A stretch of DNA of 64,000 nucleotides from Pseudooceanicola marinus (GTDB lineage Bacteria > Pseudomonadota > Alphaproteobacteria > Rhodobacterales > Rhodobacteraceae): the NCBI RefSeq assembly GCF_020177265.1, contig NZ_JAIVMC010000009.1, positions 62,001-126,000 of the forward strand, read 5' to 3'. Position 1 is the stretch's first letter. The number at the start of each line of letters is the position of its first letter. Both the position numbers and the translations under genes were made by a program. Shown here in pieces: positions 8,841-57,281 of this stretch. Under the pieces are notes generated by a model. The model had not been told where the DNA came from and did not search any database. It worked only from the letters and a program-made list of their open reading frames with translations.

Positions 8841-8896
8841 GCTGGAAATACTCCGGGGGAGGCGCGCGCCCGGCGCGCGGCGGGGGCAGAGCCCCC
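8841..8896 (+). repeat. intergenic AAATACTCC double-hairpin repeat, copy A
   Basis: AAATACTCC (8846-8854), then GGGGG, a first stem GCGCGC (8862-8867) with GCGCGC (8873-8878), and a second stem GGGGGC-AGA-GCCCCC (8882-8896). Same layout as the copies near 15.3, 26.6 and 57.2 kb. It lies between the atp terminator and the end of the GntR gene. Confidence 0.75.
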
Positions 8897-8920
8897 TTGG
8901 CGGCCCGGCCCACAGACCGG

Positions 8921-9691
8921 TCAGCTGCGGGAGGTTTCCCGGTCCAGCCGCATCTGCGCGATCTCCTCGCGCCGGGCGGCATCCAGTCGCGCCTGGTAGG
9001 CGGCCCGGACGAAATCCAGGTGCGCCTCGACAGCGGCGCGGGCCGCGGCCGGATCCCGCGCCTGGATCGCGTCGTTGATCGCCCGGTGCTGGTCAAGCAG
9101 CCGCTCCGCCGCCGCCATGCCGTCGAACATGATGTCCCGGTTGTAGAAGACGCCCGAGCGCAGCAGGTCCAGCATCGACCGCATCATGTGCAGCAGAACG
9201 ATGTTGTGCGAGGCCTCCAGGATCGCCATGTGAAAGGCCGCATCCAGCCGTGCCTCCTCTGCGGCGTCCACCTTGCCATGCGCCGCCTCCATCTTGGCAA
9301 AGGTCGCCTCGACCAGGGCCAGTTCGGCGGGCAGACCCGCGCGGGCGGCGCGTTCGGCGGCCTGGCCTTCGAGGTCACGGCGGAAGGAGATGTAGTCCAG
9401 CACGGCTTCGCCATGGCGCTGGAACAGAGCCACGAGAGCGGGGGAGAAGGCCGCGCCGAGGACGTCGGCCACGTAGACGCCGGAGCCGGCGCGGGCTTCC
9501 AGCAGACCGCGCGCTTGCAGGTCTGCCAGCGCCTCGCGCAGCGAGGGGCGCGACACCTCCAGCCGTTCGGCCAGCTCGCGCTCCGCCGGCAGGCGTTCGC
9601 CCGGGCGCAGGATGCCGCGCAGGATCAGCAGTTCGATCTGCCGGGTCACCGCGTCGGCGCGTTTCTCGGGCGGGATGGGCTGGAAGGGCAT
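8921..9691 (-). CDS. GntR family regulator, FadR/PdhR (FCD) subfamily
   Basis: A 256-residue regulator. The N-terminal winged helix (about 10-75: RGILRPGERLPAERELAERLEVSRPSLREAL) is followed by an all-helical FCD effector domain with the metal/ligand residues D and H of the FHMAILEASHN type. PdhR, LldR and GlcC belong to this group and sense small carboxylates. A perfect palindrome of the FadR-family type (9711-9729) lies 20 bases upstream of its ATG, so autorepression is likely. No obvious metabolic target is next to it. Confidence 0.92.
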   Translation of the reverse strand: MPFQPIPPEKRADAVTRQIELLILRGILRPGERLPAERELAERLEVSRPSLREALADLQARGLLEARAGSGVYVADVLGAAFSPALVALFQRHGEAVLDYISFRRDLEGQAAERAARAGLPAELALVEATFAKMEAAHGKVDAAEEARLDAAFHMAILEASHNIVLLHMMRSMLDLLRSGVFYNRDIMFDGMAAAERLLDQHRAINDAIQARDPAAARAAVEAHLDFVRAAYQARLDAARREEIAQMRLDRETSRS

Positions 9692-9710
9692 GGGGCGGCC
9701 TCGCTTGGAT

Positions 9711-9729
9711 TGGTCAGAAATTATGACCA
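9711..9729. promoter_or_regulatory. FadR-family palindromic operator of the GntR gene
   Basis: TGGTCA (9711-9716) and TGACCA (9724-9729) separated by seven bases form a 19-bp perfect dyad. FadR-type GntR regulators bind TGGT...ACCA sites. The distance to the start codon (20 bases) fits repression of its own gene. Confidence 0.65.
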
Positions 9730-9769
9730 GCGGCGCGGCCGCGCAACCCTCACGCGGTGTTCGCGGACC

Positions 9770-9785
9770 TTAAGTAGGCGTTAAC
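9770..9785. promoter_or_regulatory. CtrA-type box TTAA-N7-TTAAC
   Basis: TTAA (9770-9773), seven bases, TTAAC (9781-9785) is an exact match to the full CtrA recognition sequence of alphaproteobacteria. It lies 25 bases before the lipoprotein start codon. CtrA control of the lipoprotein is inferred. Confidence 0.6.
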
Positions 9786-9809
9786 CAGGGCCGAGGGAGG
9801 CTGCGCCCC

Positions 9810-10229
9810 ATGCGTGTGGTTCTGCTGTCCCTTTCCTGTCTGCTGCTGCTGTCGGGCTGCGGCATGCCCGATCCGCATTTTCGCCACAGCCCAAGGGTGC
9901 GCGTGCTGATCGGCCCGGATACCTTCGACGTGCGCCGGCGCGGGCGCCTGGCTGAGGCCGTGCGCCGCAACCCGCGCTATGCGCCCCGCCTCGGACCGGT
10001 CGGGCCCCGCGCGGCGCAGGCCATGGCGCTGGTCACCGGCTGTCGCGTGACCGAGATCCGCGGCGACGCGGTGATCATCCTCGGGATCCTCGACTGCGGC
10101 GGGGAGGCGGGCCAGGCAGCCGCCGTCGACCGCAACAAGCTGCCGCCCGAAGACTGCGAGATCGTGGAAAGCTGGCGCCAGTTGGGGGGGCAGGAGCTTG
10201 CCCTGGTGCTCGACTGTACGCGGATCTAG
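9810..10229 (+). CDS. putative lipoprotein, unknown function
   Basis: A 139-residue protein with a lipoprotein signal peptide: MRVVLLSLSCLLLLSGCGM, with the lipobox LLSGC putting the acylated cysteine at residue 17. The mature part has two further cysteine pairs (GCRV, LDCGG, EDCEI, VLDCTRI), so disulfides are plausible in the periplasm. GAGGGAGG precedes the ATG. A CtrA-type box sits just upstream. The stop overlaps the convergent GNAT gene in CTAG. I do not recognise the family. Confidence 0.82.
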   Translation: MRVVLLSLSCLLLLSGCGMPDPHFRHSPRVRVLIGPDTFDVRRRGRLAEAVRRNPRYAPRLGPVGPRAAQAMALVTGCRVTEIRGDAVIILGILDCGGEAGQAAAVDRNKLPPEDCEIVESWRQLGGQELALVLDCTRI

Positions 10230-10690
10230 AGGCGCCGGGCGAAAGTCACGCTGGTCGGGCGGTCAAAGCCCGGGTGGGCGGTGCGACCAACCTCGACGAA
10301 GCCCAGCCGGGTGAAGGTCGCGTGGTTCTCTACCAGCTCCACCCGGGTCTGCAGGCGGATCTCACGCAACCCATGGGCCAGCGCCCGGGTTTCCGCCTGG
10401 CCGATCATCTGCCGGGCCAGCCCTTCACCGCGCCGCGCGGGCGCCACGGCCAGCTTGCCGAGGTAGAGATGATCGCCCCGTGGCGTCACCAGCATGCAGG
10501 CGGCGGGGGCGCTGTCGGGCGGCAGGATCCACAGTTCGGCCCGGGTGGCCTCCGCCGTCAGCTCTGCCACCCCCATGCGGGTCAGCGACGACGGCGGGTC
10601 GATCCGCCCGTCCATGGTGGCAAAGCTGTCGCGCAACAGCGCCAGCACCGGCGCCAGGTTGTCCGAGGGGCTGAGGCGCAGCGGGGTCAT
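10226..10690 (-). CDS. GNAT family N-acetyltransferase
   Basis: A 154-residue single-domain GNAT protein. LGKLAVAPARRGEGLARQMIGQAE is the beta4-loop-alpha3 acetyl-CoA site with the R-R-x-G-x-G/A signature, and ENHATFTRLGFVEVG is the usual C-terminal motif. It lies three bases after the upstream GNAT gene, forming a two-gene operon. Its stop shares CTAG with the convergent lipoprotein. Substrate unknown. Confidence 0.87.
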   Translation of the reverse strand: MTPLRLSPSDNLAPVLALLRDSFATMDGRIDPPSSLTRMGVAELTAEATRAELWILPPDSAPAACMLVTPRGDHLYLGKLAVAPARRGEGLARQMIGQAETRALAHGLREIRLQTRVELVENHATFTRLGFVEVGRTAHPGFDRPTSVTFARRL

Positions 10691-10693
10691 GGT

Positions 10694-11164
10694 TCAGGCC
10701 ACGACCGGGACAAGGGTCTTGGTCATGAAGACCGAGACGCCGTTGTCCTCATAGTCGCCGAAGACCCCGCAGCGGGTGAAGCCATTGGCCTCGTAGAGGC
10801 GACAGGCGGCGGCCAGGGCGTCGCCGGTCTCCAACTTCAGTTCGGTCAGCCCCTCCGCCAGCGCCGTCTCCTCGATCCGGCGCAGAAGGGCCGTGCCCAC
10901 GCCCCGCCCCCGGGCCGCCTCGGTGACGTAGAAGCTTTTGACCTCCCCATAGCCTTCCTTGATCTGAAGGGCCGCGCAGCCCAGCGTTTCCGCGCCGTCG
11001 GCGGCGGTGAAAAAGCGCACCGATGGATCGCAAAGCGCCTCATGGCTGAGGAAGTTGTTTTCCTCCGGCGTGTAGAGCTGCTGCATCAGCGCCTGGGAGG
11101 CGTCGAGCAGGGCCGAGGCCTCGGGCGCCAGGGGCGAGGCGGGGGCGATATGAAGGGTCGTCAT
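10694..11164 (-). CDS. GNAT family N-acetyltransferase
   Basis: A 156-residue GNAT acetyltransferase. VKSFYVTEAARGRGVGTALLRRIEETA is the acetyl-CoA binding motif, and LYEANGFTRCGVFGDYEDN the C-terminal motif. Start ATG 11164 has GGAG ten bases upstream; a longer open frame upstream has no such site and an unnatural composition. First gene of a pair with the GNAT at 10226-10690. Substrate unknown. Confidence 0.87.
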   Translation of the reverse strand: MTTLHIAPASPLAPEASALLDASQALMQQLYTPEENNFLSHEALCDPSVRFFTAADGAETLGCAALQIKEGYGEVKSFYVTEAARGRGVGTALLRRIEETALAEGLTELKLETGDALAAACRLYEANGFTRCGVFGDYEDNGVSVFMTKTLVPVVA

Positions 11165-11622
11165 CTGGTCACTCCGTCGAAACTTGCGCCGCCGCGGCGT
11201 GGGGTGGACATGGTCGTGGGCGCCATGCCCCGTCCGAACGTCAGCACGCGCCCTCCGGTTGCCTGCCGAAGCCCGTCCGGGCAAAAGGCCGAAGGCCCGG
11301 GGGAACGGGCCGGTCGCCTGCGCCCTCTGTGGCGGGCGGCAGGGGCATTCTGGCGTCGCCGGAGCCGAGGTCAAGCGTCACCCGCGCGGCCCGGGCCGTC
11401 GCCGGGCCGCGCTGCGGGGGGCAGACGGCGCTGATTGGGCGGATTTGCGCAATATCTTGTGGAAAACCGCCCATCCCCTCCCAGATGCTGCGGCCCTCCC
11501 GTTGACTCGTGTGCCGTGGCTCCGCACCATTCCCTTTCAGGTCGGAATCACCCCGGTATGGCCCGGCAGGGTCCGACAGCCACCAGAGCAGACACCCCAG
11601 GCCCAAGCGCGGGAGCGCCGCA
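11165..11622. other. intergenic region upstream of smc with candidate promoter
   Basis: No gene is supported in these 458 bases. TTGACT (11502-11507), 17 bases, CACCAT (11525-11530) is a possible smc promoter with a poor -10. GGGCGG near 11437 and CCGCCC near 11468 could pair around an AT-richer loop. Otherwise GC-rich sequence without a recognisable signal. Confidence 0.4.
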
Positions 11623-14600
11623 TTGCATTTCTCCAGACTGAGACTGACCGGCTTCAAGAGCTTCGTGGACCCGACGGACCTGATCATCAATCAGGGCCTG
11701 ACCGGCGTCGTGGGGCCCAATGGCTGCGGCAAGTCGAACCTGCTGGAGGCGCTTCGCTGGGTCATGGGCGAGAACCGCCCGACCGCCATGCGCGGCGGGG
11801 GGATGGAAGACGTGATCTTCGCCGGGGCCGCCACGCGCCCGGCGCGGAACTACGCCGAGGTCAGCCTGCATATCGACAACTCCGACCGTCTGGCGCCCGC
11901 GGGCTTCAACGAGGAGGATCAGATCGAGATCATCCGCCGGATCACCCGCGACGTGGGGTCGGCCTACAAGGCGAATTCCAAGGATGTGCGGGCGCGGGAC
12001 GTGCAGATGCTGTTTGCCGATGCCTCGACGGGCGCGCATTCGCCCGCGCTGGTTCGGCAGGGGCAGATTTCCGAGCTGATCAACGCCAAGCCCAAGGCGC
12101 GGCGGCGGATCCTGGAAGAGGCGGCGGGCATCTCCGGCCTCTACCAGCGCCGGCATGAGGCCGAGCTGAAGCTGAAGGGCGCCGAACAGAATCTGACCCG
12201 CGTCGATGACGTGATCGAACAGCTGGCCACGCAGCTTGGCTCGCTCGAACGCCAGGCCCGCCAGGCGGCCCGCTATCGCGCCATCGGCGCGGAACTGCGC
12301 CAGGCCGAAGGCATGCTGCTCTACCGCCGCTGGCTGGAGGCCGAGGAGGCGCGCAACGCCGCGCTGGCGGAGCTGCGCGAACGCTCCACCGGGGCGTCGC
12401 AGGCGGAACGCATCGCGCGCGACCTGGCGGCGAAGCGGCAGGAGCTGGAAGACGCGCTGCCCCCCAAACGCGAGGAAGAGGCGATCGCGGCGGCGGTGCT
12501 GCAACGGCTGACCGTGCAGCGCGACAGCCTGGGGGCCGAGAAGGAACGCGCGATGCAGGCGATCCTGACCCTGCAGAACCGGATCGAACAGCTGTCCCGG
12601 GACCGCGAGCGCGAGGCTGGGCTGAACAAGGACGCCGGCGAGACGATCGAGCGGCTGGACTGGGAGGCGCGCGAGATCGCCCGCGCGCATGAGGGCCATG
12701 AGGAGCGCCTGGCAGAGGCCGCGGAACTGGCGACCGAGGCCGCCAGCGTGCTGTCCGACCGCGAGGCGGACCTGTCGACCCTGACCGAGGACGTGGCCCG
12801 CCTGGCCGCGCGTCACCAGTCCGCGCAGCGCATGCTAGCCGACAGCCGCAAGGGCGCCGAGCGTAGCGAAACCGAGGCGGCTCGCGCCCGCGAGGCCGTG
12901 GCCGAGGCGCGCGGCAAGACCGAGGCAGCCGAAGAGGCCTTCGAGGCCGCCGAGGAGCGCGAGGAGATGGCCCGCGCCCAGGTCGAGACCGCCGAGGAGA
13001 CCCTGGCCGAGGCCGAGGCCGCCCGCGCCGAGGCGCAGTCAGGCGAGTCCGACGCCCGCGCGGCCCTGTCCTCGGCCGAGGGCGAGGCCAAGGCCCTTCA
13101 GGCCGAGGTCGGCGCCTTGGCGCGGCTGGTCGAACGCGAGTCCGGTGAAGGCAAGCAGTTGCTGGACGCCGTGCGCGTCGATCCGGGCTATGAGAAGGCG
13201 CTCGGCGCGGCCCTGGCCGATGACCTGCGGGCGCCGGTGGTGGGCGCGGGGGACCTGTCGGGCTGGGTCGAGCTGCCGGGGTATGACGCGCCACAGCCGC
13301 TGCCCGAAGGCGCCGCGCCGCTGGCCGCCCACGCGCTGATGCCCGGCGTTCTGGATCGGCGCATGGCGCAGATCGGCGTGGTAGACGCCGGGCAGGGCGC
13401 CGCCCTGCAGGCTCAGCTGAAACCAGGCCAGCGCCTGGTCAGCCCCGAAGGCGACCTGTGGCGGTGGGACGGCTACCGGGCGGGCGCCGAGGATGCGCCC
13501 TCGGCCGCCGCCCTGCGCCTCGAACAGATGAACCGCCTGGAAGAGCTGCGCGGTGACCTGGCCGAGGCCGAAGAGCGCGCCGAGGCCGCGCGGGAGGCCC
13601 ACGCCGACCTGGCCGAGCAGCTGTCGCAGCTGACGGCCGCCGACAAGGCCGCGCGCCAAGCCCGCGCCGAGGCCGACCGCCAGCTGGCCGAGGCCAGCCG
13701 GGCCCTGTCGCGCGCCGAAAGCGACCGCAGCCTGGCTGCCAGCCGGGTGGAAAACCTGCGCATGGCCGTAACCCGCCACGAGGAAGAGGCGCTGGAGGCC
13801 CGCGCCCAGGTGAAGGAAGCCGAGGCGGCGGTGGCCGACCTCGACGATATCGACGAGGCCCGCGCCGGGATCGAGCAGATCCGCATGGCGGTGGAGGCGG
13901 CACGCATGGCGATGATGTCGCGCCGCGCCGCCCATGACGAGATCCGCCGCGAGGGCGAGGCGCGCACGAAACGCCGGCAGGAGGTGCAGAAGGAGGTCTC
14001 GGGCTGGCGTCACCGCCTGGAAAGCGCCGACCGCCGCATCGCCGAACTGGATGAGCGCCGCGCCGAGGCCGAGGAGCAGCTGGAAGAGGCGCGCGCCGAA
14101 CCCGAGGAACTGGAAGCGCAGCGCGAGGAGCTGACCGAGGCCATCGAGGAGGCAGAGGCTCGCCGGGCCACCGCCGCCGATGTCCTGGCCGAGGCCGAAA
14201 GCGCCCTGCGCGAGGCCGTGGCCGGCGAACGTGACGCCGAACGCACCGCGTCGGAGGCGCGCGAGGCCCGCGCCCGCGCCGAGGGCCACGCCGAAAGCGC
14301 CGCCCAGGCGGTGACCCAGGCGGCCGAACGTATCGCCGAGGCGATGGAGGTGACGCCGAAGCAGCTCCTGGAAAGCCTCGACATGGCCGTCGAGGACATG
14401 CCGCCCTCCGACCGGATCGAGGCGGATGTGAACCGCCTGAAGCGCCAGCGCGACGGGCTGGGTGCGGTAAACCTGCGTGCCGAGGAGGACGCCAAGGAGG
14501 TGCGCGAGGAACACGACACGCTGGTGGGCGAGAAGGCCGACCTCGAAGAGGCCATCCGCCAGCTCAGGAACGGCATCGCGGGCCTGAACCGCGAGGGGCG

Positions 14601-15078: not shown

Positions 15079-15101
15079 TCTCTGGAGTTGGGGGATCCCC
15101 T

Positions 15102-15130
15102 GTCGGGCGATGCCTCCGGCGGGAGTATTT
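15102..15130 (-). repeat. AAATACTCC repeat family, partial copy B1
   Basis: A 29-base stretch ending in GGAGTATTT (15122-15130), nearly identical to 57134-57162. It faces copy B2 (15258-15304) in inverted orientation; the flanks TGAAGAAG and CTTCTTCA also match. Confidence 0.65.
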
Positions 15131-15257
15131 GCAACAAGGTGAAGAAGCGGGACAGCGCCCTGCCGGGTGCCGGACGTCAGCCTGCCTGCAGGCGCGACCG
15201 TCCGTTTGCAGGGGCCGGCTGCCACGGGGGCGCCGTCCTTCTTCTTCACTTCGTCAG

Positions 15258-15304
15258 AAATACTCCGGGGGAGTCTCCGGTACGGAGACGGGGGCAGAGC
15301 CCCC
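15258..15304 (+). repeat. AAATACTCC double-hairpin repeat, copy B2
   Basis: AAATACTCC (15258-15266), stem GTCTCCG (15273-15279) with CGGAGAC (15283-15289), then GGGGGC-AGA-GCCCCC (15290-15304). Lies between the ends of smc and the transglycosylase gene. Confidence 0.75.
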
Positions 15305-19217: not shown

Positions 19218-19226
19218 CGAAAGGGA

Positions 19227-25669: not shown

Positions 25670-26452
25670 ATGATGGATTTGAGCATGATGGGGCCCGGCG
25701 CCCTCGGCCCCTGGGCCTGGGGGGCGATCGTGGCGGTGGCGCTGTTGGCGGGGCTGGTGAAGGGCATGGTGGGGTTCGCCATGCCGATGATCATGGTCTC
25801 GGGCCTGGGCAGCATCGTCGGCCCCGACTGGGCGCTGGCCGGGTTGATCCTGCCGACGCTGGCCACCAACGGCTGGCAGGCCCTGCGCCTGGGGCCGGCG
25901 GCGGCCTGGGCGGTGGTGAAACGGTTCCGCGTCTTTCTGGGCGTGGCGCTGGTGGCGCTGCTGATCTCGGCGCAGTTGGTCTCGGTCCTGCCGGAGCGGG
26001 TGATGCTGCTGATGATAGGCGGGCCCATCGTCCTCTTTGCCCTGACCCAGCTGATGGGTCGCCAGCTGCGCCTGGCGCATCCGCCGAAACGGGCGGTGGA
26101 ACTGGCGGTGGCGCTGGTGGCGGGGTTCATCGGCGGGTTCTCGGGCGTCTGGGGGCCGCCGACGGTGGCCTACCTGACGGCGTTGGAGACGCCCAAGCGC
26201 GAACAGATCCAGGTGCAGGGGGTGATCTACGGGCTGGGCGCGGTCTCGCTGCTCTTTGCCCACCTTGGCTCCGGCGTGCTGCGCGCCGAGACGCTGCCGT
26301 TTTCGTTGATGATAGTGCCGCTGGCCCTGGCAGGCATGTGGGTCGGGCTGCGCCTGCATGATCGGATTGACCAGGCCACCTTCCGCCGTGCGACCCTGGT
26401 GGTGTTGCTGGTGGCGGGGCTGAACCTGTTGCGGCGCGCGCTGATGGTCTGA
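25670..26452 (+). CDS. TSUP family (TauE/SafE) membrane permease
   Basis: A 260-residue permease with about eight hydrophobic segments. LLAGLVKGMVGFAMPMI (residues 25-41) and GFIGGFSGVWGPPTVAYL (149-166) are the two internal repeats of the sulfite exporter/TauE family, which move small organosulfur or carboxylate anions. ATG 25670 is directly followed by a second ATG; the ribosome site is weak. Divergent from mcd and convergent with the RimK fusion. Substrate unknown; a carboxylate would fit the neighbourhood but this is a guess. Confidence 0.88.
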   Translation: MMDLSMMGPGALGPWAWGAIVAVALLAGLVKGMVGFAMPMIMVSGLGSIVGPDWALAGLILPTLATNGWQALRLGPAAAWAVVKRFRVFLGVALVALLISAQLVSVLPERVMLLMIGGPIVLFALTQLMGRQLRLAHPPKRAVELAVALVAGFIGGFSGVWGPPTVAYLTALETPKREQIQVQGVIYGLGAVSLLFAHLGSGVLRAETLPFSLMIVPLALAGMWVGLRLHDRIDQATFRRATLVVLLVAGLNLLRRALMV

Positions 26453-26541
26453 CGCCGGGGGCGTTGCCCCGCCGCCGTCGCGGCAAATGGACGGCGGAGG
26501 GGGCTTTTCCCCCGCCGCGGCTGCGGCAAGTGACGGGGAGA

Positions 26542-26593
26542 GGGGGCCTTGCCCCCGTCTCCGTGCCGGAGACTCCCCCAGAGTATTTCCAGC
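26542..26593 (-). repeat. AAATACTCC double-hairpin repeat, copy C1
   Basis: Read on the minus strand as the core AAATACTC followed by stem GTCTCCG/CGGAGAC (26557-26563 with 26567-26573) and stem GGGGGC/GCCCCC (26542-26547 with 26551-26556). Further GGGGGC-like hairpins lie at 26459-26530. Its end pairs with copy C2. Confidence 0.72.
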
Positions 26594-26605
26594 CATCGTA
26601 TAGGT

Positions 26606-26638
26606 GAAAGGGGGCGCCGCGCGTGACGCCGCCCTTTC
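26606..26638. terminator. hairpin between the facing repeat copies
   Basis: GAAAGGG (26606-26612) pairs with CCCTTTC (26632-26638), continued by GGCG with CGCC. Lies in the convergent gap between the TSUP and RimK-fusion genes, so it may terminate both. Confidence 0.5.
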
Positions 26639-26649
26639 TCTGTCCGGAA

Positions 26650-26664
26650 GCTGGAAATACTCCG
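26650..26664 (+). repeat. AAATACTCC repeat family, short copy C2
   Basis: GCTGGAAATACTC (26650-26662) is an exact reverse complement of GAGTATTTCCAGC at 26581-26593. The hairpin tail seen in full copies is missing. Confidence 0.65.
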
Positions 26665-26716
26665 GCCTGAGGTGTCCGACCCGGCGGAGGTCGACAGGCC
26701 GGGGCGGCGCGCGGCC

Positions 26717-28099
26717 TCAGGTCTTGCGTTTGCTGCGCGGGCTGCGGGGCGCGACCTTGGCCTCGATGTGCTGCAGGACCAGCGAGGCGATGTCCTTGTG
26801 CGAAACCTTCTCGATCCCTTCGAGGCCCGGGGAGGAGTTCACCTCCAACACCTTCGGGCCGTCCTCGCCGCGCAACAGGTCCACGCCCGCCAGGTCCAGC
26901 TTCATCGCGCGGGCGGCGCGCACGGCGGTGTCGCGTTCGGTGCGGGTGATGCGCACCGGCTCGGCCGTGCCGCCCTGATGCAGGTTCGAGCGGAAATCAT
27001 CAGGCGCCCCCCGGCGGCGCATCGCGGCCACCACCTTGCCGCCGACCACCAGGCAACGGATGTCCTCTCCGGCGGCTTCCTTGACGAAGCTCTGCACCAG
27101 GAAGTCGGCTTTCAGGCCGCGGAAGGCCGAGATCACCGACTCGGCGGCCTTCTTGGTCTCAGCCAGAACCACGCCCTTGCCTTGCGTCGATTCCAGCAGC
27201 TTCAGCACCAGAGGCGCGCCGCCCACGAGCTGGATCAGGTTGCCCGAGTCCTTGGGGCTGCGGGCGAAGGCCGTGGTGGGCATGCCGATGCGGTGCCGGG
27301 CCAGGACCTGGTGGGCATAGAGCTTGTCCCGGGACATGGCGATGCCTTCGGAGCCCGCCAGGGAATAGGTGCCCATGCTTTCAAACTGGCGCACGACGGC
27401 GGTGCCGTAGTTGGTGATCGAGGCGCCGATGCGGGGGATCACCGCGTCGTAGTGAGGCAGGCGGCGGCCATCGTAGTGCACTTCGCCCCCCACGGCGCGG
27501 ATGTTCATGTAGCAGCGCGAGGTGTCGATCACCTCCAGCGTATGGCCGCGGGCTTCTGCCGCCTCGATGAAGCGGCCCGTGGAATAGTTGCCCGGTTCCC
27601 GCGTCAGGATCGCCAGGCGCAGGGCGCGACGGTGCTTCTTCAGCCGGGGCGTGTCACGGTAGCTGTCGAAGGACAGCTCCGGCTGGCAGAAGCTCTGTGC
27701 GGGCGAGACGATCATGTCCTCGGCGATGGCCGACCGTCCCAGCAGCATGCGGTAGGCCATGGAGCCGCGATCGGTCAGCGTCACCTCCAGCGGCCAGCTG
27801 CGATCGCCCATGGTCACCTCGGTCTCGATGACGAAGCGCAGCTCGGTCTCGCCGTTGGACGAGGTTACCTCGCGGCGGTCCTTCAGCGGCGCGGAGCAGA
27901 TGATCTCCAATGACTCGTCGGACGGGTCGGGGTGGATGGCGAAGCGCACCATGGGTTTCTCGGCCGGGCCGAAGGGTTCGATGGCGAAGGCGTGCAGGGC
28001 AGATGTCCGGGCGCCGGTGTCCACCTTGGCGCGGATCGCGGGCAGGCCGAGGCCGGGCAGAGAGAGCCATTCCTCCCAGCCGAGTGTGAATTGCGCCAT
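26717..28099 (-). CDS. RimB-like/RimK fusion: aspartyl protease-like domain plus ATP-grasp ligase
   Basis: A 460-residue two-domain protein. Residues 5-150 form the RimB/ATP-dependent zinc protease family fold ([16 protein letters not shown] with D27, MLLGRSAI). Residues 160-450 form a RimK ATP-grasp ligase ([71 protein letters not shown]). RimK adds glutamates to the C-terminus of ribosomal protein S6, and RimB is its protease partner in other bacteria. Start ATG 28099 has AAGGA. Target here is inferred. Confidence 0.88.
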
Positions 28100-28248: not shown

Positions 28249-28278
28249 GAAATATCCCCGCAGGCGGCATCGCCGCCT
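28249..28278 (+). repeat. AAATACTCC repeat family, degenerate copy D
   Basis: AAATATCCC (28250-28258) followed by stem AGGCGGC (28262-28268) with GCCGCCT (28272-28278). The second stem is eroded. Lies just after the end of the DUF3859-like gene. Confidence 0.45.
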
Positions 28279-35655: not shown

Positions 35656-36549
35656 TTGGTAGACTCGACTGAAAATCACGTCGCTCGCGGGCACCAGAGC
35701 GCGCCCGATCAGGTCAACTATACCAAGTATGACCGACGGTCCCTGACCTATTCCAACACCTTCGACAATGCCTTCCAGCGCAATGCGATCCGCACCCTGG
35801 AATGGTTCACCGGCAAGCTGACGATCCTGCGGCTGATCCGCAAGTTCGAGCGTCAGGGCGCGCCGCAGGGCCAGGCCTTCTGGAAGGCCTGCCTGGACGT
35901 GATGGGCATCCCCGTCACCACCCCCGAAGAGCAACTGGCGAAGATCCCGGCCGACGGCCCCGTCGTGGTGGTCGCGAACCACCCGCACGGCATGGTCGAC
36001 GGCATGATCCTGGCCGAGATGGTCGGCCGTCGCCGCCTCGACTACAAGATCCTGACCCGCTCCGTGCTGACCGGCATCGACGAGGTCGCCTCGTCCTACA
36101 TGATCCCGGTGCCCTTTCCGCATGACCCGGAAGCGCAGAAGAAGATGATCGAGATGCGCGCAAAGGCCATGGCGCACCTGAAGGAAGGCGGGCTGGTCGC
36201 GCTGTTCCCTTCCGGTGTGGTCGCAGCCTCGGAAAGCATGTTTGGCCCGGCCATCGAGGCCGAATGGAACGTCTTCACTGCGCAGATGATCCGCCGCTCC
36301 GGCGCCAAGGTCGTGCCGATCCATTTCACCGGCGGCAATTCGCGCTGGTATCACGTCGCCAACCGCATCTCGGCCACCCTGCGCCAGGGTCTGCTGCTGC
36401 ATGAGATCGTGCATTCGCTGAACAAGCCCCAGGCGCCGATCGTCGGTGACGTGATCGACGACGCGCAGATGGAAGAGCTGAAGAAGAACCCCCGCGGGTT
36501 CATGGCCTGGCTGCGCGAGCACACGCTGAAGCTGGGCAACAAGGGCTGA
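35656..36549 (+). CDS. LPLAT-family acyltransferase
   Basis: A 297-residue protein with the lysophospholipid-acyltransferase block VVVVANHPHGMVDGMILAEMV, the NHPxGxxDG variant of the NHxxxxD motif, and LFPSGVVAASESMFGPAIEAEWNVF as the later PlsC-like block. The start is a TTG at 35656, preceded by AGGTGA; no ATG occurs before residue 83. It is the last gene of the HPr cluster, 71 bases after ptsH, and probably uses acyl-ACP or acyl-CoA in membrane lipid synthesis. Exact acceptor unknown. Confidence 0.85.
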   Translation: MVDSTENHVARGHQSAPDQVNYTKYDRRSLTYSNTFDNAFQRNAIRTLEWFTGKLTILRLIRKFERQGAPQGQAFWKACLDVMGIPVTTPEEQLAKIPADGPVVVVANHPHGMVDGMILAEMVGRRRLDYKILTRSVLTGIDEVASSYMIPVPFPHDPEAQKKMIEMRAKAMAHLKEGGLVALFPSGVVAASESMFGPAIEAEWNVFTAQMIRRSGAKVVPIHFTGGNSRWYHVANRISATLRQGLLLHEIVHSLNKPQAPIVGDVIDDAQMEELKKNPRGFMAWLREHTLKLGNKG

Positions 36550-36575
36550 TCGCCTCGCCCCGGTTGGACGGCAGA

Positions 36576-36627
36576 GGGGGCTTTGCCCCCCGGCGTGGCA
36601 GGCCACGCCTCCCCCCAGAGATTTTCG
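36576..36627 (-). repeat. AAATACTCC double-hairpin repeat, variant copy E
   Basis: Second stem GGGGGC-TTT-GCCCCC (36576-36590), first stem GGCGTGGC (36592-36599) with GCCACGCC (36602-36609), then CCCCCC-AGAGATTTT in place of GGAGTATTT. Lies between the acyltransferase end and the TIGR02186 gene end. Confidence 0.6.
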
Positions 36628-36673
36628 GCTGTCGGATGACCCGTATGCCGACTAACGGCCCTGGGCGATCCGG

Positions 36674-37492
36674 TTACTGGTTGCGCAGAAGGCGGAAGAT
36701 TTCCGAGGCGCCCCAGCCCGCGAAGATGGCGATGAAGATCGCCAGCAGCGCGTAGAGCACACCCTGTTCGCGCGACAGCGCGTAGAGCCATTGTTCCAGC
36801 CCCACCTTGCCCACACGGATCGCCGTTTCATGGGTCGAGGCGACCGACCCATCGCGCACCAGGTAGACGTCGACGCTGTAGACGCCCGTGGGCAGCGACG
36901 AGGGCAGCGGCACCGAGGTCCGGAACAGCGTCTGCCGGTCGAAGCCCACGGTTTCCTCGCGCATCTGGTAGAGCCCGGCGCGCTGGCGGATCCGCACCAG
37001 TGCCTCGACGAAGGCGTCCTCGTCCGTCACCTCGTCGCCCGAGGTGATCGAGCGGATGGCGCGGGGGATCGAGATGCGGTGACGCAGATCCTCGGTGGCT
37101 GACAGGATGTCGTCCAGGGGCGCGGAGGTGGCCACGGCGTAGAAGCTGGGCGCCTGGCGGATCGTCACCTGGTCGGCGTTCACCCAGATACCGGCACGGC
37201 GTTCCTTGCGCTGCACCGCGATCGGCTCGTTCGGCCCGGCGACGGTGATGATGACATCGGCCGGCTCCGCCAGCGGCGCGGTGTCGCGTTTGACGGCGCC
37301 GAAGATCAGGATCTCGGAGCCGTCGAAATTGGCGGTGATCGCCACGCGGTTCTGCGACAGGCCCAGGACCAGTTCCTCGGGTGCAGGCAGGGCGGGGACC
37401 TCCTCCGCCTGCTGCGCGGGCAGGGCGACGGGGGCGGCCAGCAGGGCGGCGGCCAGGAGAGCCCGAAGGGCAGAGAGGCGAGGCAGGCGCAT
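36674..37492 (-). CDS. TIGR02186 family transmembrane protein
   Basis: A 272-residue protein: signal peptide (to about residue 27), a beta-rich periplasmic domain (EELVLGLSQNRVAITANFDGSEILIFGAVKR, GIWVNADQVTIRQAPSFYAVATSAPL), and one C-terminal membrane helix (GVLYALLAIFIAIFAGWGASEIFRLL). This family is regularly found beside TauE-type exporters and is thought to assist them. Start ATG 37492, two bases after the exporter stop, so cotranscribed. A longer upstream frame is only the shadow of the exporter gene. Confidence 0.9.
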   Translation of the reverse strand: MRLPRLSALRALLAAALLAAPVALPAQQAEEVPALPAPEELVLGLSQNRVAITANFDGSEILIFGAVKRDTAPLAEPADVIITVAGPNEPIAVQRKERRAGIWVNADQVTIRQAPSFYAVATSAPLDDILSATEDLRHRISIPRAIRSITSGDEVTDEDAFVEALVRIRQRAGLYQMREETVGFDRQTLFRTSVPLPSSLPTGVYSVDVYLVRDGSVASTHETAIRVGKVGLEQWLYALSREQGVLYALLAIFIAIFAGWGASEIFRLLRNQ

Positions 37493-45978: not shown

Positions 45979-46390
<412 letters not shown>

Positions 46391-46587
46391 TATCCGCCCA
46401 TAGCTCGCGCAGATCCGCCGATCGTCCCGTTCCGGGGCTATCGGAGGGAACCCGCCCGGCCGCTGCATTGCAGCGCGCTGAAACCCGCCAGTGGGCGGGA
46501 GGCACCGCGGGAACGCCGGGGCCAGCGCCACGTTGGACTGGCAGAGATCCCCGCACCCTGCGTGGATGAGCTTGAGGAGGAGAACTC

Positions 46588-51008: not shown

Positions 51009-51019
51009 TGGCGCTTTCG

Positions 51020-51052
51020 CGGCAGGGAGGCCCGTGAAGGGCACCCCTGCCG
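51020..51052. terminator. bidirectional hairpin between convergent lysR and oxidoreductase genes
   Basis: CGGCAGGG (51020-51027) pairs with CCCTGCCG (51045-51052), then an internal loop, then GCCC/GGGC around GTGAA. Confidence 0.65.
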
Positions 51053-51063
51053 CCCGTCCTGGC

Positions 51064-52727: not shown

Positions 52728-52922
52728 AAGGGTGACCAGGCGTGATCTGACCTGGGGACGCAGGTTAGATTCGCAGCGTAAAAATGACCTTGGCCCGTTG
52801 CGGGCCGACAGGGGCGATCAGGATCCGGGGTGGCGGATCCGACGATCGACATGGGGACAGTGATCGGCCGGGCGGGACCCCGGCAGGACACAAGACTTCA
52901 GAAAATGCGGTTCGTGCAGTGG

Positions 52923-52942
52923 CCCGTGACTCTTGTCACGGG
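52923..52942. terminator. 8-bp hairpin in the XRE-hisN gap
   Basis: CCCGTGAC (52923-52930) pairs perfectly with GTCACGGG (52935-52942) around TCTT, about 50 bases before hisN. A weaker GGCCCG/CGGGCC hairpin is at 52792-52806. The rest of the gap shows nothing else. Confidence 0.4.
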
Positions 52943-52993
52943 AGCCGTCTCGGGCTAGCTCTCGCGTCCACGTGACGTAGGGGAGGCGAGACG

Positions 52994-53797
52994 ATGCAGC
53001 CGGATGGAACCGAGATCCTGGCGACGGCGCACGAGATGGCGGAGGCCGCCCGTGCGGCGATCCTGCCGCATTTCCGCAGCCAGACCCTTTCCGAGGACAA
53101 CAAGCTGGCCGGGGGCTACGACCCGGTGACCGAGGCCGACCGTGCCGCGGAACGTGCCATGCGCGCGGTGCTGGCGGACCGGCGTCCGCAGGATGCGGTC
53201 CTGGGCGAGGAGTATGGCGCCCAGGCGGGCGAGAGCGGCCTGACCTGGGTGCTGGATCCGATCGACGGCACCCGCGGCTTCGTCAGCGGCACGCCGACCT
53301 GGGGCGTGCTGATCGGCCTCACCGACGGCGACCGGGTCCTGATGGGCATGGTCGACCAGCCCTACACCGGCGAACGCTTCTGGGGGGGCTTCGGAGAGGC
53401 CCGGATGACCGGCCCGCAGGGAGACCGCCCTCTCGCGGCCCGCGAAGAGACGCCGGGCGGTCTTGCAGGCGCGATCCTCTTCACCACCTTCCCCGAGGTT
53501 GGCAGCCCGACCGAGGCCGAGGCCTTCCGCTCCGTGGCCGAACAGGTGAAGCTGACCCGCTATGGCATGGATTGCTATGCCTACGCCCTGCTGGCGGCCG
53601 GCCAGGTCGATCTGGTGATCGAGGCCGGGCTGAATTCCTACGATATCCAGGGGCCTTTGGGCGTGATCGAGGCGGCGGGCGGCATAGTTACCGACTGGCG
53701 CGGCGGTCCGGCCCTTCAGGGCGGGCGCGTTCTGGCGGCGGCGAACCCGGCCATCCACCGCGCGGCGCTGGACATTCTCGCGGCTTTCCCGGAATAA
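52994..53797 (+). CDS. hisN: histidinol-phosphatase, IMPase-type
   Basis: A 267-residue Mg-dependent phosphatase of the inositol monophosphatase fold. Metal residues: E72/E73 in GEEYG, D88 and D91 in WVLDPIDGTRGFVSG, and the later aspartate in NSYDIQGPLGVIEAAGG. The TRGF instead of TNNF after DPIDG favours the HisN group that removes phosphate from histidinol phosphate, though activity on other sugar phosphates is possible. GGGAGG precedes the ATG. Seven bases from the next gene. Confidence 0.9.
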   Translation: MQPDGTEILATAHEMAEAARAAILPHFRSQTLSEDNKLAGGYDPVTEADRAAERAMRAVLADRRPQDAVLGEEYGAQAGESGLTWVLDPIDGTRGFVSGTPTWGVLIGLTDGDRVLMGMVDQPYTGERFWGGFGEARMTGPQGDRPLAAREETPGGLAGAILFTTFPEVGSPTEAEAFRSVAEQVKLTRYGMDCYAYALLAAGQVDLVIEAGLNSYDIQGPLGVIEAAGGIVTDWRGGPALQGGRVLAAANPAIHRAALDILAAFPE

Positions 53798-53803
53798 AGC
53801 CGC

Positions 53804-55144
53804 ATGGAGCGCAGCTACCTGATCCGCAACGCGGAACATATCCTGACGATGGATGATCACCGGACCGAGCTTTTCGGCGCCGACATTCTCGTCTCCGGCG
53901 GCAAGATCCGCGCCATCGGCCCCAAGCTCAGCCAACCCGAGGCGGAGGTGATCGACGCCACCGGCTGCGTGGTGACGCCCGGTCTGGTGAACACCCATCA
54001 TCACCTGTTTCAGACGCTGACGCGGGCGGTGCCGGCGGCACAGGATGCGCTGCTCTTCGGCTGGCTCCAGACGCTCTACCCGATCTGGGAACGCTTCGGC
54101 CCTGCCGAAATGCGCTCCTCCGCGATGATCGGACTGGCGGAACTGGCCCTGTCGGGCTGTTCGCTGACCTCGGATCACCTGTACCTCTTTCCCAACGGGT
54201 CGCGGCTGGATGACACCATCGAGGCGGCGGCGGAGGTCGGCCTGCGCTTTCACCCCACGCGCGGTGCCATGTCCATCGGCGTCAGCCAGGGCGGCCTGCC
54301 GCCGGACAGCCTGGTGGAGGACGAGGCGGCGATCCTCGACGATTGCATTCGCGTCATCGACACCTTCCACGACCCGCGCGAAGGCTCCATGCTGCGCGTG
54401 GGCATCGCCCCCTGTTCGCCCTTCTCCGTCTCGCGCGAGCTGATGCGCGATGCGGCCCTGCTGGCGCGGGACAAGCGGGTGATGCTGCACACCCACCTGG
54501 CCGAAAATGCCGAGGACATCGCCTATTCCGAGGCCAACTTCGGCTGCCGCCCCGGGCAGTACGCCGAGGATCTGGGCTGGACCGGGGACGATGTCTGGCA
54601 TGCCCATTGCGTGAAACTGGACGACAGCGAGGTGGCGCTTTTTGCCCGCACGGGCACGGGCGTCGCCCATTGCCCCTGTTCCAACTGCCGGCTGGGGTCG
54701 GGCATCGCGCCGGTGCGCGGCATGCGCGATGCGGGCGTGAAGGTCGGGCTGGGCGTCGACGGATCGGCCAGCAACGACGGGTCGAACCTGGTGGCCGAGG
54801 CGCGGCAGGCGATGTTGTTGCAGCGGGTCAGCCAAGGGGCTGACGCCATGAGCGCCCGTGAGGCGCTGGAGATTGCCACCCGCGGTGGTGCCGATGTGCT
54901 GGGCCGGCCCGATTGCGGGCGCCTGGCCCATGGCAAGCGCGCCGATATCGCCATCTGGGATGTCTCGGGTATCGACAGTGCCGGAAGCTGGGATCCCGCC
55001 GCCTTGCTGCTGGCTGGGCCGATGCGGGTGAAACACCTGCTGGTCGAGGGTCGGCAGGTGGTGCGCGACCGGCAGATGCCGCATCTGGATCTGCCGGCGC
55101 TGGTCGCGCGGCAGCGTCAGCTGGCCGAAGGGCTGATGGCATGA
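53804..55144 (+). CDS. 8-oxoguanine deaminase (amidohydrolase)
   Basis: A 446-residue amidohydrolase. Metal sites: HxH in LVNTHHHLFQTLTRAVP (H65, H67), MLHTHLAENAEDI, WHAHCVKLDD and LGVDGSASNDGSN (metal aspartate). The family includes hydroxyatrazine ethylaminohydrolase-like enzymes now known mostly as 8-oxoguanine deaminases that make urate. It is cotranscribed with hisN and overlaps the CAP gene by ATGA. It fits purine salvage together with guaD and the nucleoside importer. Confidence 0.88.
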   Translation: MERSYLIRNAEHILTMDDHRTELFGADILVSGGKIRAIGPKLSQPEAEVIDATGCVVTPGLVNTHHHLFQTLTRAVPAAQDALLFGWLQTLYPIWERFGPAEMRSSAMIGLAELALSGCSLTSDHLYLFPNGSRLDDTIEAAAEVGLRFHPTRGAMSIGVSQGGLPPDSLVEDEAAILDDCIRVIDTFHDPREGSMLRVGIAPCSPFSVSRELMRDAALLARDKRVMLHTHLAENAEDIAYSEANFGCRPGQYAEDLGWTGDDVWHAHCVKLDDSEVALFARTGTGVAHCPCSNCRLGSGIAPVRGMRDAGVKVGLGVDGSASNDGSNLVAEARQAMLLQRVSQGADAMSAREALEIATRGGADVLGRPDCGRLAHGKRADIAIWDVSGIDSAGSWDPAALLLAGPMRVKHLLVEGRQVVRDRQMPHLDLPALVARQRQLAEGLMA

Positions 55145-55677
55145 GTGGTGTCCGGTCTCTGCCCCTGCGCCCGCGCGCGCGCCTGGCCCTGCTGGCCTGT
55201 CTGGCGCTGATGGCCTGCCAGGGCGGAACGGCCCGGCAGGCGGCTCAGCAGAGCGCGCCTGTAGGTGCGGCGGTCGCCGTGCCCGCCAGCCTGCCCGCCC
55301 CGGTGGTGACCCGCGAACAGGGCGATCTTCTGGCAGCGATCAACGCCTTTCGCAGCGCCCGTGGCCGCGCGCCCCTGGAGCCCGATCCGCAGGCGCGCCT
55401 GGCGGCGGAACGCCATGCCCGCGACCTGCGCGGCCTGGGGGAACTGAGCCACGTCGGATCCGATGGCAGCACTGTGGGGGAACGGGTCAGCCGCGAGGGC
55501 ATGGCCTGGTGCCGCGTGGCCGAGAACCTGGCCCGCGGCCAGTCCAGCGCCGATATGGCCGTGACCGGCTGGTCTGTCAGCCCGGGCCACCGCCGCAACC
55601 TGCTGGGGGACTACACCCTGGTCGGCACGGCGCGAAACGGCGAGATCTGGGTGGCGGTCTTCGTCAAACCCTGCTGA
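55141..55677 (+). CDS. CAP/SCP-domain lipoprotein
   Basis: A 178-residue lipoprotein: signal with LALMAC lipobox (cysteine 26), then a CAP domain (about 60-175) with LLAAINAFRSARGRAPLEPD, AAERHARDL, LSHVGSDGSTVGERV, AENLARG and SPGHRRNLLGDYTLVG, the SCP signature with its histidines. The start overlaps the deaminase stop. Such proteins sit on the periplasmic side of the envelope; biochemical role unknown. Confidence 0.9.
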   Translation: MSGVRSLPLRPRARLALLACLALMACQGGTARQAAQQSAPVGAAVAVPASLPAPVVTREQGDLLAAINAFRSARGRAPLEPDPQARLAAERHARDLRGLGELSHVGSDGSTVGERVSREGMAWCRVAENLARGQSSADMAVTGWSVSPGHRRNLLGDYTLVGTARNGEIWVAVFVKPC

Positions 55678-55707
55678 GCTGCCGCAGGCTCAGGTGAGGG
55701 GTGGGGC

Positions 55708-55722
55708 CGCGCCACTGGCGCG
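55708..55722. terminator. small hairpin between convergent CAP and gltX genes
   Basis: CGCGCC (55708-55713) pairs with GGCGCG (55717-55722) around ACT. No T run. Confidence 0.35.
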
Positions 55723-55734
55723 ACCCGGCGGGCC

Positions 55735-57063
55735 TCAGCCCTTCTTGGCGCGGATCACCTGCATCAGCGGCAAAACCTTGGACATGTCCGGCCCGTGTGA
55801 CATGCCGGTCACGGCCTTGCGCAGCGGCATGAAGAGGCCACGGCCCTTGCGGCCCGTCGCCTCCTTCACGGCCTTGGTCCACTCGCCCCAGGTGGTTTCG
55901 TCATGCGGGCCCTCGGGCAGCAGGGTCATGGCCTCGGCGATGAAATCCTCGTCCTCGGGGTCGATCAGCGGGTCGGCGCCGTCGCGGAACATCGTCCACC
56001 AGGCCGGCAGGTCGTGCAGCGTGGTGATATTGTCGCGCACCACGGTCCAGAACAGTTCGGCCCGGTCGGCGGGCACGCCAAGGGCCGCGACCTCGTCAGC
56101 CACGTCCGCCAGCGGACGCTGCTGCAGGATGTGGGCGGTCAGCGGGAAGAGGTCCTTCTCGTCGAATTTCGTCGGCGCCGAGCCGAAGGTGTCCAGGTCG
56201 AAGCCCTCCGCCAGCTCCTCGACCGAGCCCGCGACCTCGACCGGCTGGGAGGAGCCCAGGCGGGCCATCAGTGACAGCAGGGCCATCGGTTCGACCCCTT
56301 GGGCGCGCAGGTCGCGGATGGACAGCACGCCCAGACGCTTCGATAGAGCCTCGCCCTGCGGGCCGGTCAGCAGCGAGTGGTGGGCGAAGGTCGGCACGCT
56401 GCCGCCAAGCGCCTCGATGATCTGGATCTGGGTGGCGGTGTTGGTCACGTGGTCGCTGCCGCGCACGACGTGGGTCACGCCCATCTCGGTGTCATCGACG
56501 ACCGAGGCGAGGGTATAGAGCATCTGCCCGTCGGCCCGGATCAGCACCGGGTCCGAGACGGAAGCCGCGTCGATGGAAATCTCGCCCAGGATGCCGTCCT
56601 CCCAGGTGATCCGCTCCTGGTCCAGCTTGAACCGCCAGACGCCGGGGCCGCGCTCCTCGCGCAGCTTGGCCTTCTCGTCGTCCGACAGGTCCAGCGCGGC
56701 GCGGTCGTAGACCGGCGGCTTGCCCATGTTCAGCTGCTTCTTGCGCTTCAGGTCCAGCTCGGTCGGCGTTTCGAAGGCCTCGTAGAAGCGGCCCATGTCG
56801 CGCAGCCGGTCGGCGGCGTCCAGGTAACGATCCATCCGCTTGGACTGGTATTCCACGCGATCCCAGGTCAGGCCGAGCCATTCCAGGTCTTCCATGATCC
56901 CGTCGATATATTCCTGCTTCGAGCGTTCCTGGTCGGTGTCGTCGATGCGCAGGATGAACGTCCCGCCGGCCTTGCGGGCGATCAGGAAGTTGAACAGCGC
57001 GGTGCGCAGGTTGCCGACGTGGATATAGCCGGTCGGCGAGGGGGCAAAACGGGTGGTGGTCAT
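55735..57063 (-). CDS. gltX: glutamate--tRNA ligase (short GluRS)
   Basis: A 442-residue class I synthetase. FAPSPTGYIHVGNLRTALFN contains the HIGH-type motif as HVGN (residues 15-18), and GEALSKRLGVLSIRDL the KMSKS-type motif as LSKR. The C-terminal anticodon-binding domain is helical. Many alphaproteobacteria carry two GluRS; the LSKR variant and 440-residue length point to the second type, but which tRNA it charges cannot be told here. Start ATG 57063 has CAGGAG. Confidence 0.95.
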   Translation of the reverse strand: MTTTRFAPSPTGYIHVGNLRTALFNFLIARKAGGTFILRIDDTDQERSKQEYIDGIMEDLEWLGLTWDRVEYQSKRMDRYLDAADRLRDMGRFYEAFETPTELDLKRKKQLNMGKPPVYDRAALDLSDDEKAKLREERGPGVWRFKLDQERITWEDGILGEISIDAASVSDPVLIRADGQMLYTLASVVDDTEMGVTHVVRGSDHVTNTATQIQIIEALGGSVPTFAHHSLLTGPQGEALSKRLGVLSIRDLRAQGVEPMALLSLMARLGSSQPVEVAGSVEELAEGFDLDTFGSAPTKFDEKDLFPLTAHILQQRPLADVADEVAALGVPADRAELFWTVVRDNITTLHDLPAWWTMFRDGADPLIDPEDEDFIAEAMTLLPEGPHDETTWGEWTKAVKEATGRKGRGLFMPLRKAVTGMSHGPDMSKVLPLMQVIRAKKG

Positions 57064-57133
57064 GGCGAACTCCTGTTGGCCGCCTCTAAGCATGCGCCGC
57101 GCCGATTGTCCAGAAAACGAAGGGATCGCCCGT

Positions 57134-57162
57134 GCCGGGCGAGGCCTCCGGCGGGAGTATTT
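57134..57162 (-). repeat. AAATACTCC repeat family, partial copy F
   Basis: Ends in GGAGTATTT (57154-57162) and matches 15102-15130 at all but a few positions. The flank GGGTATGGG faces CCCATACGA at 57217, forming an inverted pair with copy G. Confidence 0.65.
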
Positions 57163-57232
57163 CCGGCCAGGGTATGGGCAGGGGCGTCGCGCCCGGATCG
57201 GGGGGACCCGCCTTTTCCCATACGATGGCTGA

Positions 57233-57281
57233 AAATACTCCGGGGGGCGCCTCCGGACCGGAGGCGGGGGGCAGCGCCCCC
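57233..57281 (+). repeat. AAATACTCC double-hairpin repeat, copy G
   Basis: AAATACTCC (57233-57241), first stem CGCCTCCG (57248-57255) with CGGAGGCG (57259-57266), second stem GGGGGC-AGC-GCCCCC (57267-57281). It lies 20 bases after the end of the cyclo-ligase gene. Confidence 0.75.

What the first reader, a model, noticed from the sequence alone, without database searches (positions are those of the whole stretch)
8841..57281. Dispersed intergenic repeat family with a covarying hairpin
About eight copies share AAATACTCC-GGGGG, then a first stem and a second stem GGGGGC-NNN-GCCCCC (8841, 15102, 15258, 26542, 26650, 36576, 57134, 57233; eroded copy 28249). The second stem is nearly constant. The first stem changes: GCGCGC, GTCTCCG/CGGAGAC (twice, with different loops), GGCGTGGC/GCCACGCC, CGCCTCCG/CGGAGGCG and AGGCGGC/GCCGCCT. 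In every case both arms change together, so pairing is under selection. All copies lie between genes, mostly at 3' ends. I know no named family with this structure; it behaves like a REP/BIME element.
Basis: seen in the sequence. Interest (0 to 1): 0.72.

Follow-up and report, generated by a model that had tools for sequence, protein, structure and literature searches.

The report
Genome-tagged palindromic elements of Rhodobacteraceae
The repeats are copies of a small hairpin-forming DNA element scattered by the dozen or hundred through one bacterial family, with one fixed word shared by the family and one word that differs between genomes, which suggests that something unknown recognises, moves or rewrites them.

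Summary
The repeat is real, but the finding mixed two parts. Five of nine listed sites are an 'A half' (hairpin II GGGGGCnnnGCCCCC, variable hairpin I, CCCCC-GGAGTATTT, arm). Four are a different 'B half' in inverted orientation. The genome (probably Pseudooceanicola) has at least 135 model matches. The exact core occurs in 118 of 295 family genomes, and once each in 2 of 285 genomes of other families of the class. Hairpin I covaries strongly.

New here: (1) after GGAGTATTT and 2-3 free bases comes a ~10-nt word, near-uniform in several genomes and different between genomes; (2) sister species differ at the same sites by gain or loss, arm replacement and an inverted centre; (3) other genera carry in-frame copies inside genes; (4) hairpin I mismatches are wobbles on one strand only (20:0; conservatively 8:0); (5) no RAYT/IS200-type transposase (PF01797) in this genome.

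Best reading: a REP/BIME-like, non-autonomous, mobile or recently mobile palindrome family with an unidentified mover. Strict REP membership fails (no GTAG/CGTC tag, no RAYT). Function and mover are not shown. I found no earlier description in the open-access searches I made.

The parts
8832..8896 (-). A half: hairpin II, hairpin I (CGCGCGC/GCGCGCG), CCCCC-GGAGTATTT, arm
   Evidence: core eroded in the sister genome (site C)
15102..15144 (+). B half (hairpin, CCTCCGGCGGGAGTATTT, arm AACAAGGTGAAG); left side of a two-sided element
15145..15243 (.). Centre of the two-sided element 15102-15304
   Evidence: (site D, conserved in the sister)
15244..15304 (-). A half, hairpin I GTCTCCG/CGGAGAC, arm GACGAAGTGAAG
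26542..26602 (+). A half with core CAGAGTATTT, hairpin I GTCTCCG/CGGAGAC, arm GCCATCGTATA
   Evidence: in G303 the same place has another arm (site E); place empty in G298, G308, G312
26641..26700 (-). Deviant B half with AAATACTCC at 26655 and its own hairpin GGCCTG..CAGGCC
   Evidence: end coordinate set by eye
28249..28278 (-). Eroded B half, hairpin AGGCGGC/GCCGCCT
   Evidence: complete elements at the orthologous place in G298 and G312
36576..36639 (+). A half with eroded core CAGAGATTTT, hairpin I GGCGTGG/CCACGCC
   Evidence: present in G303
57134..57176 (+). B half, arm GCCAGGGTATG; left side of a two-sided element
   Evidence: conserved in the sister (site F)
57219..57281 (-). A half, hairpin I CGCCTCCG/CGGAGGCG, arm GCCATCGTATG
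61294..61328 (.). Place between convergent genes that is empty here; the sister G303 has a complete A-B element
   Evidence: site G

Best explanation
A family of small non-autonomous palindromic elements, REP/BIME-like in how they behave and found almost only in the Rhodobacteraceae. Read on strand S the unit is hairpin II, an optional hairpin I, CCCCC-GGAGTATTT, 2-3 free bases and a lineage-specific word. Two units in inverted orientation (typically an A end and a B end) round a variable centre make the complete element; one-sided copies are common. Shown: the anatomy, the distribution, the genome-specific words, gain or loss and replacement at orthologous sites, and in-frame copies inside genes of other genera. 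Inferred: copies spread, or recently spread, and are partly overwritten by other copies, through a factor that recognises the bipartite site GGAGTATTT-N2-3-word while strand F (AAATACTCC first, hairpins after it) is single-stranded, as RNA or as ssDNA. That factor is not identified and is not a Y1 (RAYT/IS200) transposase of this genome. The enrichment between convergent genes would then mostly reflect where insertion does least harm.
For: At least 135 copies in this genome and 16 to at least 150 in the 22 genus genomes. A whole element present in the 95% sister and absent here (site G); the place 26452-26717 empty in three relatives and filled in two genomes. Arms differ on both sides at sites A and H and on one side at E; 81 nt of the centre of A inverted at 95% identity with unchanged end hairpins. 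In-frame copies in xdhA, xdhB and nnrE of other genera. Words near-uniform inside several genomes and different between genomes. Hardly any preference for one orientation between tandem genes (22 to 17). Arms of two-sided elements agree in class in 15 of 15. Wobbles on strand F only (20 to 0).
Against: No mover found: PF01797 absent here, and neighbouring genes showed no candidate. No target-site duplication could be defined. In-gene copies are few and partly old. Strong pairing and the avoidance of divergent regions also fit a host function. The wobble bias is dominated by one stem class, could come from a strand-specific mutation bias, and is not seen in B ends (3 A.C, 2 G.T). Several genomes, this one included, use more than one word.
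Confidence: 0.55

Rival explanations
1. Host-useful RNA element: a 3'-end or intercistronic structure that ends transcription, stops exonucleases or carries an RNase E site (GUAUU is AU-rich), kept by selection at each gene.
For: Enrichment between convergent genes and avoidance of divergent ones; covarying hairpins; many copies lie within tens of bases of a stop codon; RNase E sites of R. sphaeroides are AU-enriched (PMC6238624, passages).
Against: The wobble strand F is not the sense strand of the upstream gene; tandem orientation nearly even; no T-run after hairpin II on F, T 49% at +1 then about half C (n=252); some copies lie beyond a complete terminator-like hairpin with T-run (L041, L066, read by eye); it does not explain words, copies inside genes or the inverted centre.
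Confidence: 0.25
2. Binding site of a host DNA or RNA factor (nucleoid protein, regulator, or an uptake-sequence-like system) whose specificity drifts, so that each lineage has its own word.
For: Constant half plus lineage word, the pattern seen in DUS dialects (PMC3630211, abstract); intergenic inverted pairs.
Against: About one copy per 30 kb, while the DUS abstract speaks of thousands per genome; changes of several bases in both arms at once between 95% sisters (A and H) do not look like drift; several words in one genome.
Confidence: 0.1
3. Relics of a Y1 (RAYT or IS200/IS605) transposase that was lost from this lineage.
For: BIME-like inverted pairs; a conserved tag 5' of the hairpins on strand F; 30 of 295 family genomes do hold PF01797.
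Against: None in G000 or G192; PF01797 in 7 of 118 element genomes against 23 of 177 others; turnover between 95% sisters means recent activity; no GTAG/CGTC tag.
Confidence: 0.06

Closest known systems
REP / BIME elements with RAYT transposases (PMC2817692, passages)
   Same: GC-rich short palindromes in high copy number, mostly extragenic, inverted pairs, sequence differing between genomes while the palindrome is kept
   Different: No GTAG or CGTC tag, no PF01797 gene in this genome, two successive hairpins plus a ~23-nt tail with a genome-specific word, exchange or inversion of centres, copies inside genes in other genera
Rickettsia palindromic elements (PMC10969869, passages)
   Same: Palindromic elements, in-frame copies inside conserved genes of an alphaproteobacterium
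   Different: Mostly intergenic; other sequence and size; genome-specific word; I compared no sequences with RPEs
MITEs such as ERIC or RUP (recalled; review PMC10969869, passages)
   Same: Intergenic imperfect palindromes of about 100-200 bp, presence/absence differences, occasional copies inside genes
   Different: Many one-sided copies, no target duplication or parent insertion sequence found, hairpins outside the inverted arms
DNA uptake sequence dialects of Neisseriaceae (PMC3630211, abstract)
   Same: Dispersed motif with species-specific variants round a shared core, often in inverted pairs (last point recalled)
   Different: Far fewer copies, long structured element, no uptake role shown

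Membership tests
REP/BIME | Palindromic, mostly extragenic, in high copy number | tested here: met
   135 model matches; 0 of 73 sites in genes here; covarying stems
REP/BIME | GTAG (or CGTC) tag at the foot of the palindrome | tested here: not met
   Alignment of 56 A halves: foot is CCCCC-GGAGTATTT, that is AAATACTCC-GGGGG on F
REP/BIME | RAYT (PF01797) gene in the genome, flanked by inverted copies | tested here: not met
   0 matches in G000 and G192; 30 of 295 family genomes
REP/BIME | Pairs in inverted orientation | tested here: met
   17 two-sided elements among 95 S-site readings
MITE | Terminal inverted repeats shared with a transposase-bearing parent | tested here: inconclusive
   Inverted arms present; no parent found among neighbouring genes, which is a partial test
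MITE | Target-site duplication | tested here: inconclusive
   One presence/absence pair with close flanks (site G); boundaries not sharp
Rickettsia palindromic element | In-frame insertion into protein genes | tested here: met
   xdhA, xdhB, nnrE and probably nrdJ in other genera; none of 73 sites in this genome
Rickettsia palindromic element | Sequence homology to RPE families | not tested
   No RPE sequence was compared
Intrinsic terminator | Hairpin directly followed by a T-run | tested here: not met
   n=252 A ends on F: T 49% at +1, then 0.15-0.23 per position; on S the hairpins are followed by CCCCC-GGAG
Known Rfam family | Match at gathering score | tested here: not met
   3 matches in the window, none at the repeats; at 57050-57350 only a weak mir-2041 match, 18.2 bits against 70
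DNA uptake sequence | Promotes DNA uptake through a cognate receptor | not testable with these tools
   Needs transformation or gene-transfer assays

The most novel reading that the evidence does not exclude
A bacterial palindromic mobile element spread and rewritten in place by an undescribed, non-Y1 machinery that reads a bipartite site, a family-wide half plus a genome-specific word: a new kind of dispersed element with species dialects, acting on one strand, possibly as RNA.
Probability: 0.25. Interest if true: 0.82.

Novelty: new variant of a known kind. Interest (0 to 1): 0.6.

Why it matters
The element is in at least 118 of 295 sampled genomes of a well-studied family, yet I found no description of it. 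If it moves, it needs a mobiliser other than the known REP transposase. If it does not, its words point to a host factor that evolves together with dozens of sites. Either way the genome-specific word gives a direct handle: find what binds or copies it. Element-derived loops may also explain variable proline-rich stretches in conserved enzymes such as xanthine dehydrogenase.

Tried and rejected
RAYT/IS200 transposase as the present mover: rejected for this genome. Intrinsic terminator on F: no T-run. Stabiliser in the mRNA-sense 3' UTR: the wobble strand is the other one and tandem orientation is nearly even. Lagging-strand ssDNA route: no two-arc orientation bias in 100 copies of G314 (62 of 100 agree, shuffled mean 62.7, 128 of 200 shuffles at least as high), but the sampled GC skew is too irregular to place the replication arms, so this is weak. 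Partner gene: clustering of 223 neighbouring proteins gave small clusters (largest 8, an ABC transporter ATPase by my reading), nothing that looks like a mover (crude gene calls). Change of the xdhB copies in step with the genome word: G039 matches, G119 is near, G110 does not, so not claimed. B-end wobble: inconclusive. Viral contigs: 81 sites in the 80 loci examined of 101 stretches, 4 with a hairpin II-like sequence, two of them the same sequence. Plasmids: 11 records with partial matches, Paracoccus 5, Pseudooceanicola 1, not followed. Earlier description: searches by sequence (877 papers hold one of the two 9-mers, 20 listed) and by subject (listings only) showed none; term searches inside PMC3733652, PMC12306157 and PMC2267715 found no mention of the Rhodobacter-type genera that I asked for.
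Full report
WHAT IS THERE. Strand S reads GGAGTATTT; strand F is the other. The 14-mer AAATACTCCSGGGG occurs 61 times in the 4.55-Mb genome and 0 times read backwards. Three of the sites lie in the window; I fetched 58 stretches for the rest. Window and stretches hold 73 AAATACTCC sites. From 65 core matches I extracted 60 A halves; 5 were not parsed. 56 were aligned; 2 without hairpin I and 2 with a long one were left out. They read GGGGGC-nnn-GCCCCC (hairpin II), a variable hairpin I, CCCCC-GGAGTATTT and an arm. Copies were chosen by the core, so the invariance of the core is by construction. The model of these gives 135 matches at E up to 0.01 (150 of 8603 candidates were scored, so a floor).

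TWO HALVES. Sites 15102, 57134 and 28249 are a second kind of end (B: AAATACTCC-CGCCGGAGGC or an eroded form, plus its own hairpin), and 26650 a deviant one. In 95 S-site readings of own-genome stretches (some stretches overlap) I found 17 two-sided elements. Gaps between core motifs are 49-51 nt in 7, 66-70 in 3, 126-131 in 5, and 80 and 142 once each. Arms agree in class in 15 of the 15 that could be classed (shuffled mean 5.0, highest 12 in 2000); mean arm identity is 0.82 against 0.56 shuffled (highest 0.735).

HAIRPIN I. Over 60 copies the mean longest Watson-Crick stem is 6.17, against 3.04 for shuffled interiors and 3.43 for swapped halves. In all loci (204 stems, relaxed core) there are 1244 Watson-Crick pairs, 20 A.C, 0 G.T and 4 other mismatches on S. 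A.C on S is G.T on F, so wobble is seen on F only. The 20 fall into 17 distinct interiors, 10 of one stem class (GCC..GACT); counted as 8 to 0 the two-sided P is 0.008 (my arithmetic). With a lower stem threshold it is 21 to 1. In 61 minimal elements the inner flanking pair gives 3 A.C and 0 G.T, the outer 0 A.C and 1 G.T. B ends give 3 A.C and 2 G.T and decide nothing. A strand-specific mutation bias could mimic the effect.

WHERE. By my own gene caller, not a standard program, 0 of 73 sites lie inside a gene; 30 lie between convergent genes, 39 between tandem genes (22 and 17 by orientation) and 4 between divergent genes. Expected by intergenic length in 206 kb of this contig: 12.3, 43.4 and 17.4. 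Both halves of two-sided elements count, so the P values there are optimistic. For 121 sites in loci of other genomes a cruder caller put 41 inside its gene calls, mostly through over-long starts as far as I looked; of the other 80, 30 were convergent, 41 tandem (24 and 17), 4 divergent and 5 had a missing neighbour.

HOW FAR IT SPREADS. AAATACTCCSGGGG occurs in 118 of 295 family genomes, own genome included, up to 89 times. About 75 genomes have five or more by my count of that table; the reversed control gives one hit in about six genomes, so single hits can be chance. In a class-wide draw, 2 of 285 genomes outside the family have one hit each, both of one genus (4 of the 289 were family members; a few control hits occur too). 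The genus is probably Pseudooceanicola, because P. marinus loci carry the same words; this is an inference.

GENOME-SPECIFIC WORDS. After GGAGTATTT come 2-3 free bases, then a word. (64 of 295 genomes match, control 0) fixed part of the word in its pattern (AARDNGAA); (12 genomes) did not. G258: CCAAGAAGAA in 21 of 22. G124: ACAAGRTGAAG in 17 of 19. G119: GCAAGAGGAA in 11 of 21. From one search's capped list: G041 GCAAGATGAA 5 of 5, G214 CTAAGAAGAA 13 of 13. G128 has at least three words (GAATAATGAA, CGAAGGTGAA, CGATGGTGAA), G039 and G119 are mixed, and the window's genome has three main ones (ACGAAGTGAAG, GCCAACGTATG, GCTGTCGGATG, with variants). Entropies by position: G258 1.38 and 1.38 bits at the free bases, then 0 for 12 positions (n=7); G128 (n=19), G005 (n=22) and G000 (n=72) are mixed.

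TURNOVER. The sister G303 aligns over about 167 kb at 92-96% identity. Of nine element places on this stretch, seven were aligned, one read by eye (own 56964, conserved) and one compared (S3). Two-sided D and F are conserved; both arms differ at A and H; the left arm and the right end differ at E; the core is eroded or altered in the sister at B and C. One complete element is in the sister only (G, window 61294-61328), and at place I the sister has about 100 extra bases with an eroded core. At A the end hairpins are alike but 81 nt of the centre are inverted at 95% identity (E 2.9e-34, minus strand; on the plus strand only 7-base matches). Control D aligns on the plus strand over 127 nt, with a weaker 35-nt minus match from its palindrome. 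More distant relatives: the place 26452-26717 is filled in G303 and empty in G298, G308 and G312. The eroded place at 28249 is eroded in G303 too but complete in G298 and G312, with hairpin I GTCGAGC/GCTCGAC and GTCTCCG/CGGAGAC. At 36549-36674 G303 has the element, G298, G308 and G312 keep at most a hairpin II-like remnant, G301 has a variant core (GAGGTACTT), and 12 other genus genomes read there show no core.

INSIDE GENES. Among 121 CCCCCGGAGTATTT sites a filter flagged 17 open-frame overlaps. Four convince me by translation: nnrE of Actibacterium ureilyticum (L080), xdhB and xdhA of Tritonibacter aquimaris (L170), and an ORF I read as ribonucleotide reductase nrdJ (L085, not searched). Against solved relatives the xdhA copy falls between two aligned blocks. 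The nnrE copy lies just before the main aligned block, while the N-terminal side is not significant. The xdhB copy falls in a poorly aligned loop longer than in R. capsulatus. In xdhB the junction could be read in 14 of 30 fetched relatives, and 6 of the 14 show GTATTT or AAATAC; in xdhA 1 of 6.

WHAT MOVES OR KEEPS IT. PF01797 is in 30 of 295 genomes, not in G000 or G192, and in 7 of 118 element genomes against 23 of 177 others (overlap counted by me). I favour a mobile non-autonomous element with an unknown mover, at 0.55. Host function is the main rival: it fits position and pairing, but not easily words, copies inside genes and the inverted centre.

KNOWN OR NEW. It works like a REP/BIME but fails two defining features (tag, RAYT; passages of PMC2817692). 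In-frame copies recall Rickettsia palindromic elements (PMC10969869, passages). The words recall DUS dialects (PMC3630211, abstract). I found no description of the family in the searches named under Tried and rejected; most subscription papers and all preprints were out of reach.

Noticed in passing
window 45981-46391 (+), 3069-3120 (-), 62586-62673 (+): Rfam matches above gathering score: RNase P class A, ffh sRNA and a glycine riboswitch aptamer.
   Followed up: no
L026, L054, L216 and others, centres of long elements: Long centres often share a motif like GAGCGTGCCACGC (read by eye), perhaps a further module.
   Followed up: no
L170:2969-4465 (+): Next to the in-gene copy the XdhA linker holds a short repeated peptide stretch (AEPPLNQTGAEPPLNKPAAEPP).
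   Followed up: no
G301 (L190), window place 36549-36674: The same hairpins can carry another core, GAGGTACTT instead of GGAGTATTT, so copy counts by the exact core are floors.
   Followed up: no
L496-L515 (G314, one contig): GC skew sampled in 20 places changes sign many times, suggesting rearrangements or assembly trouble.
   Followed up: no
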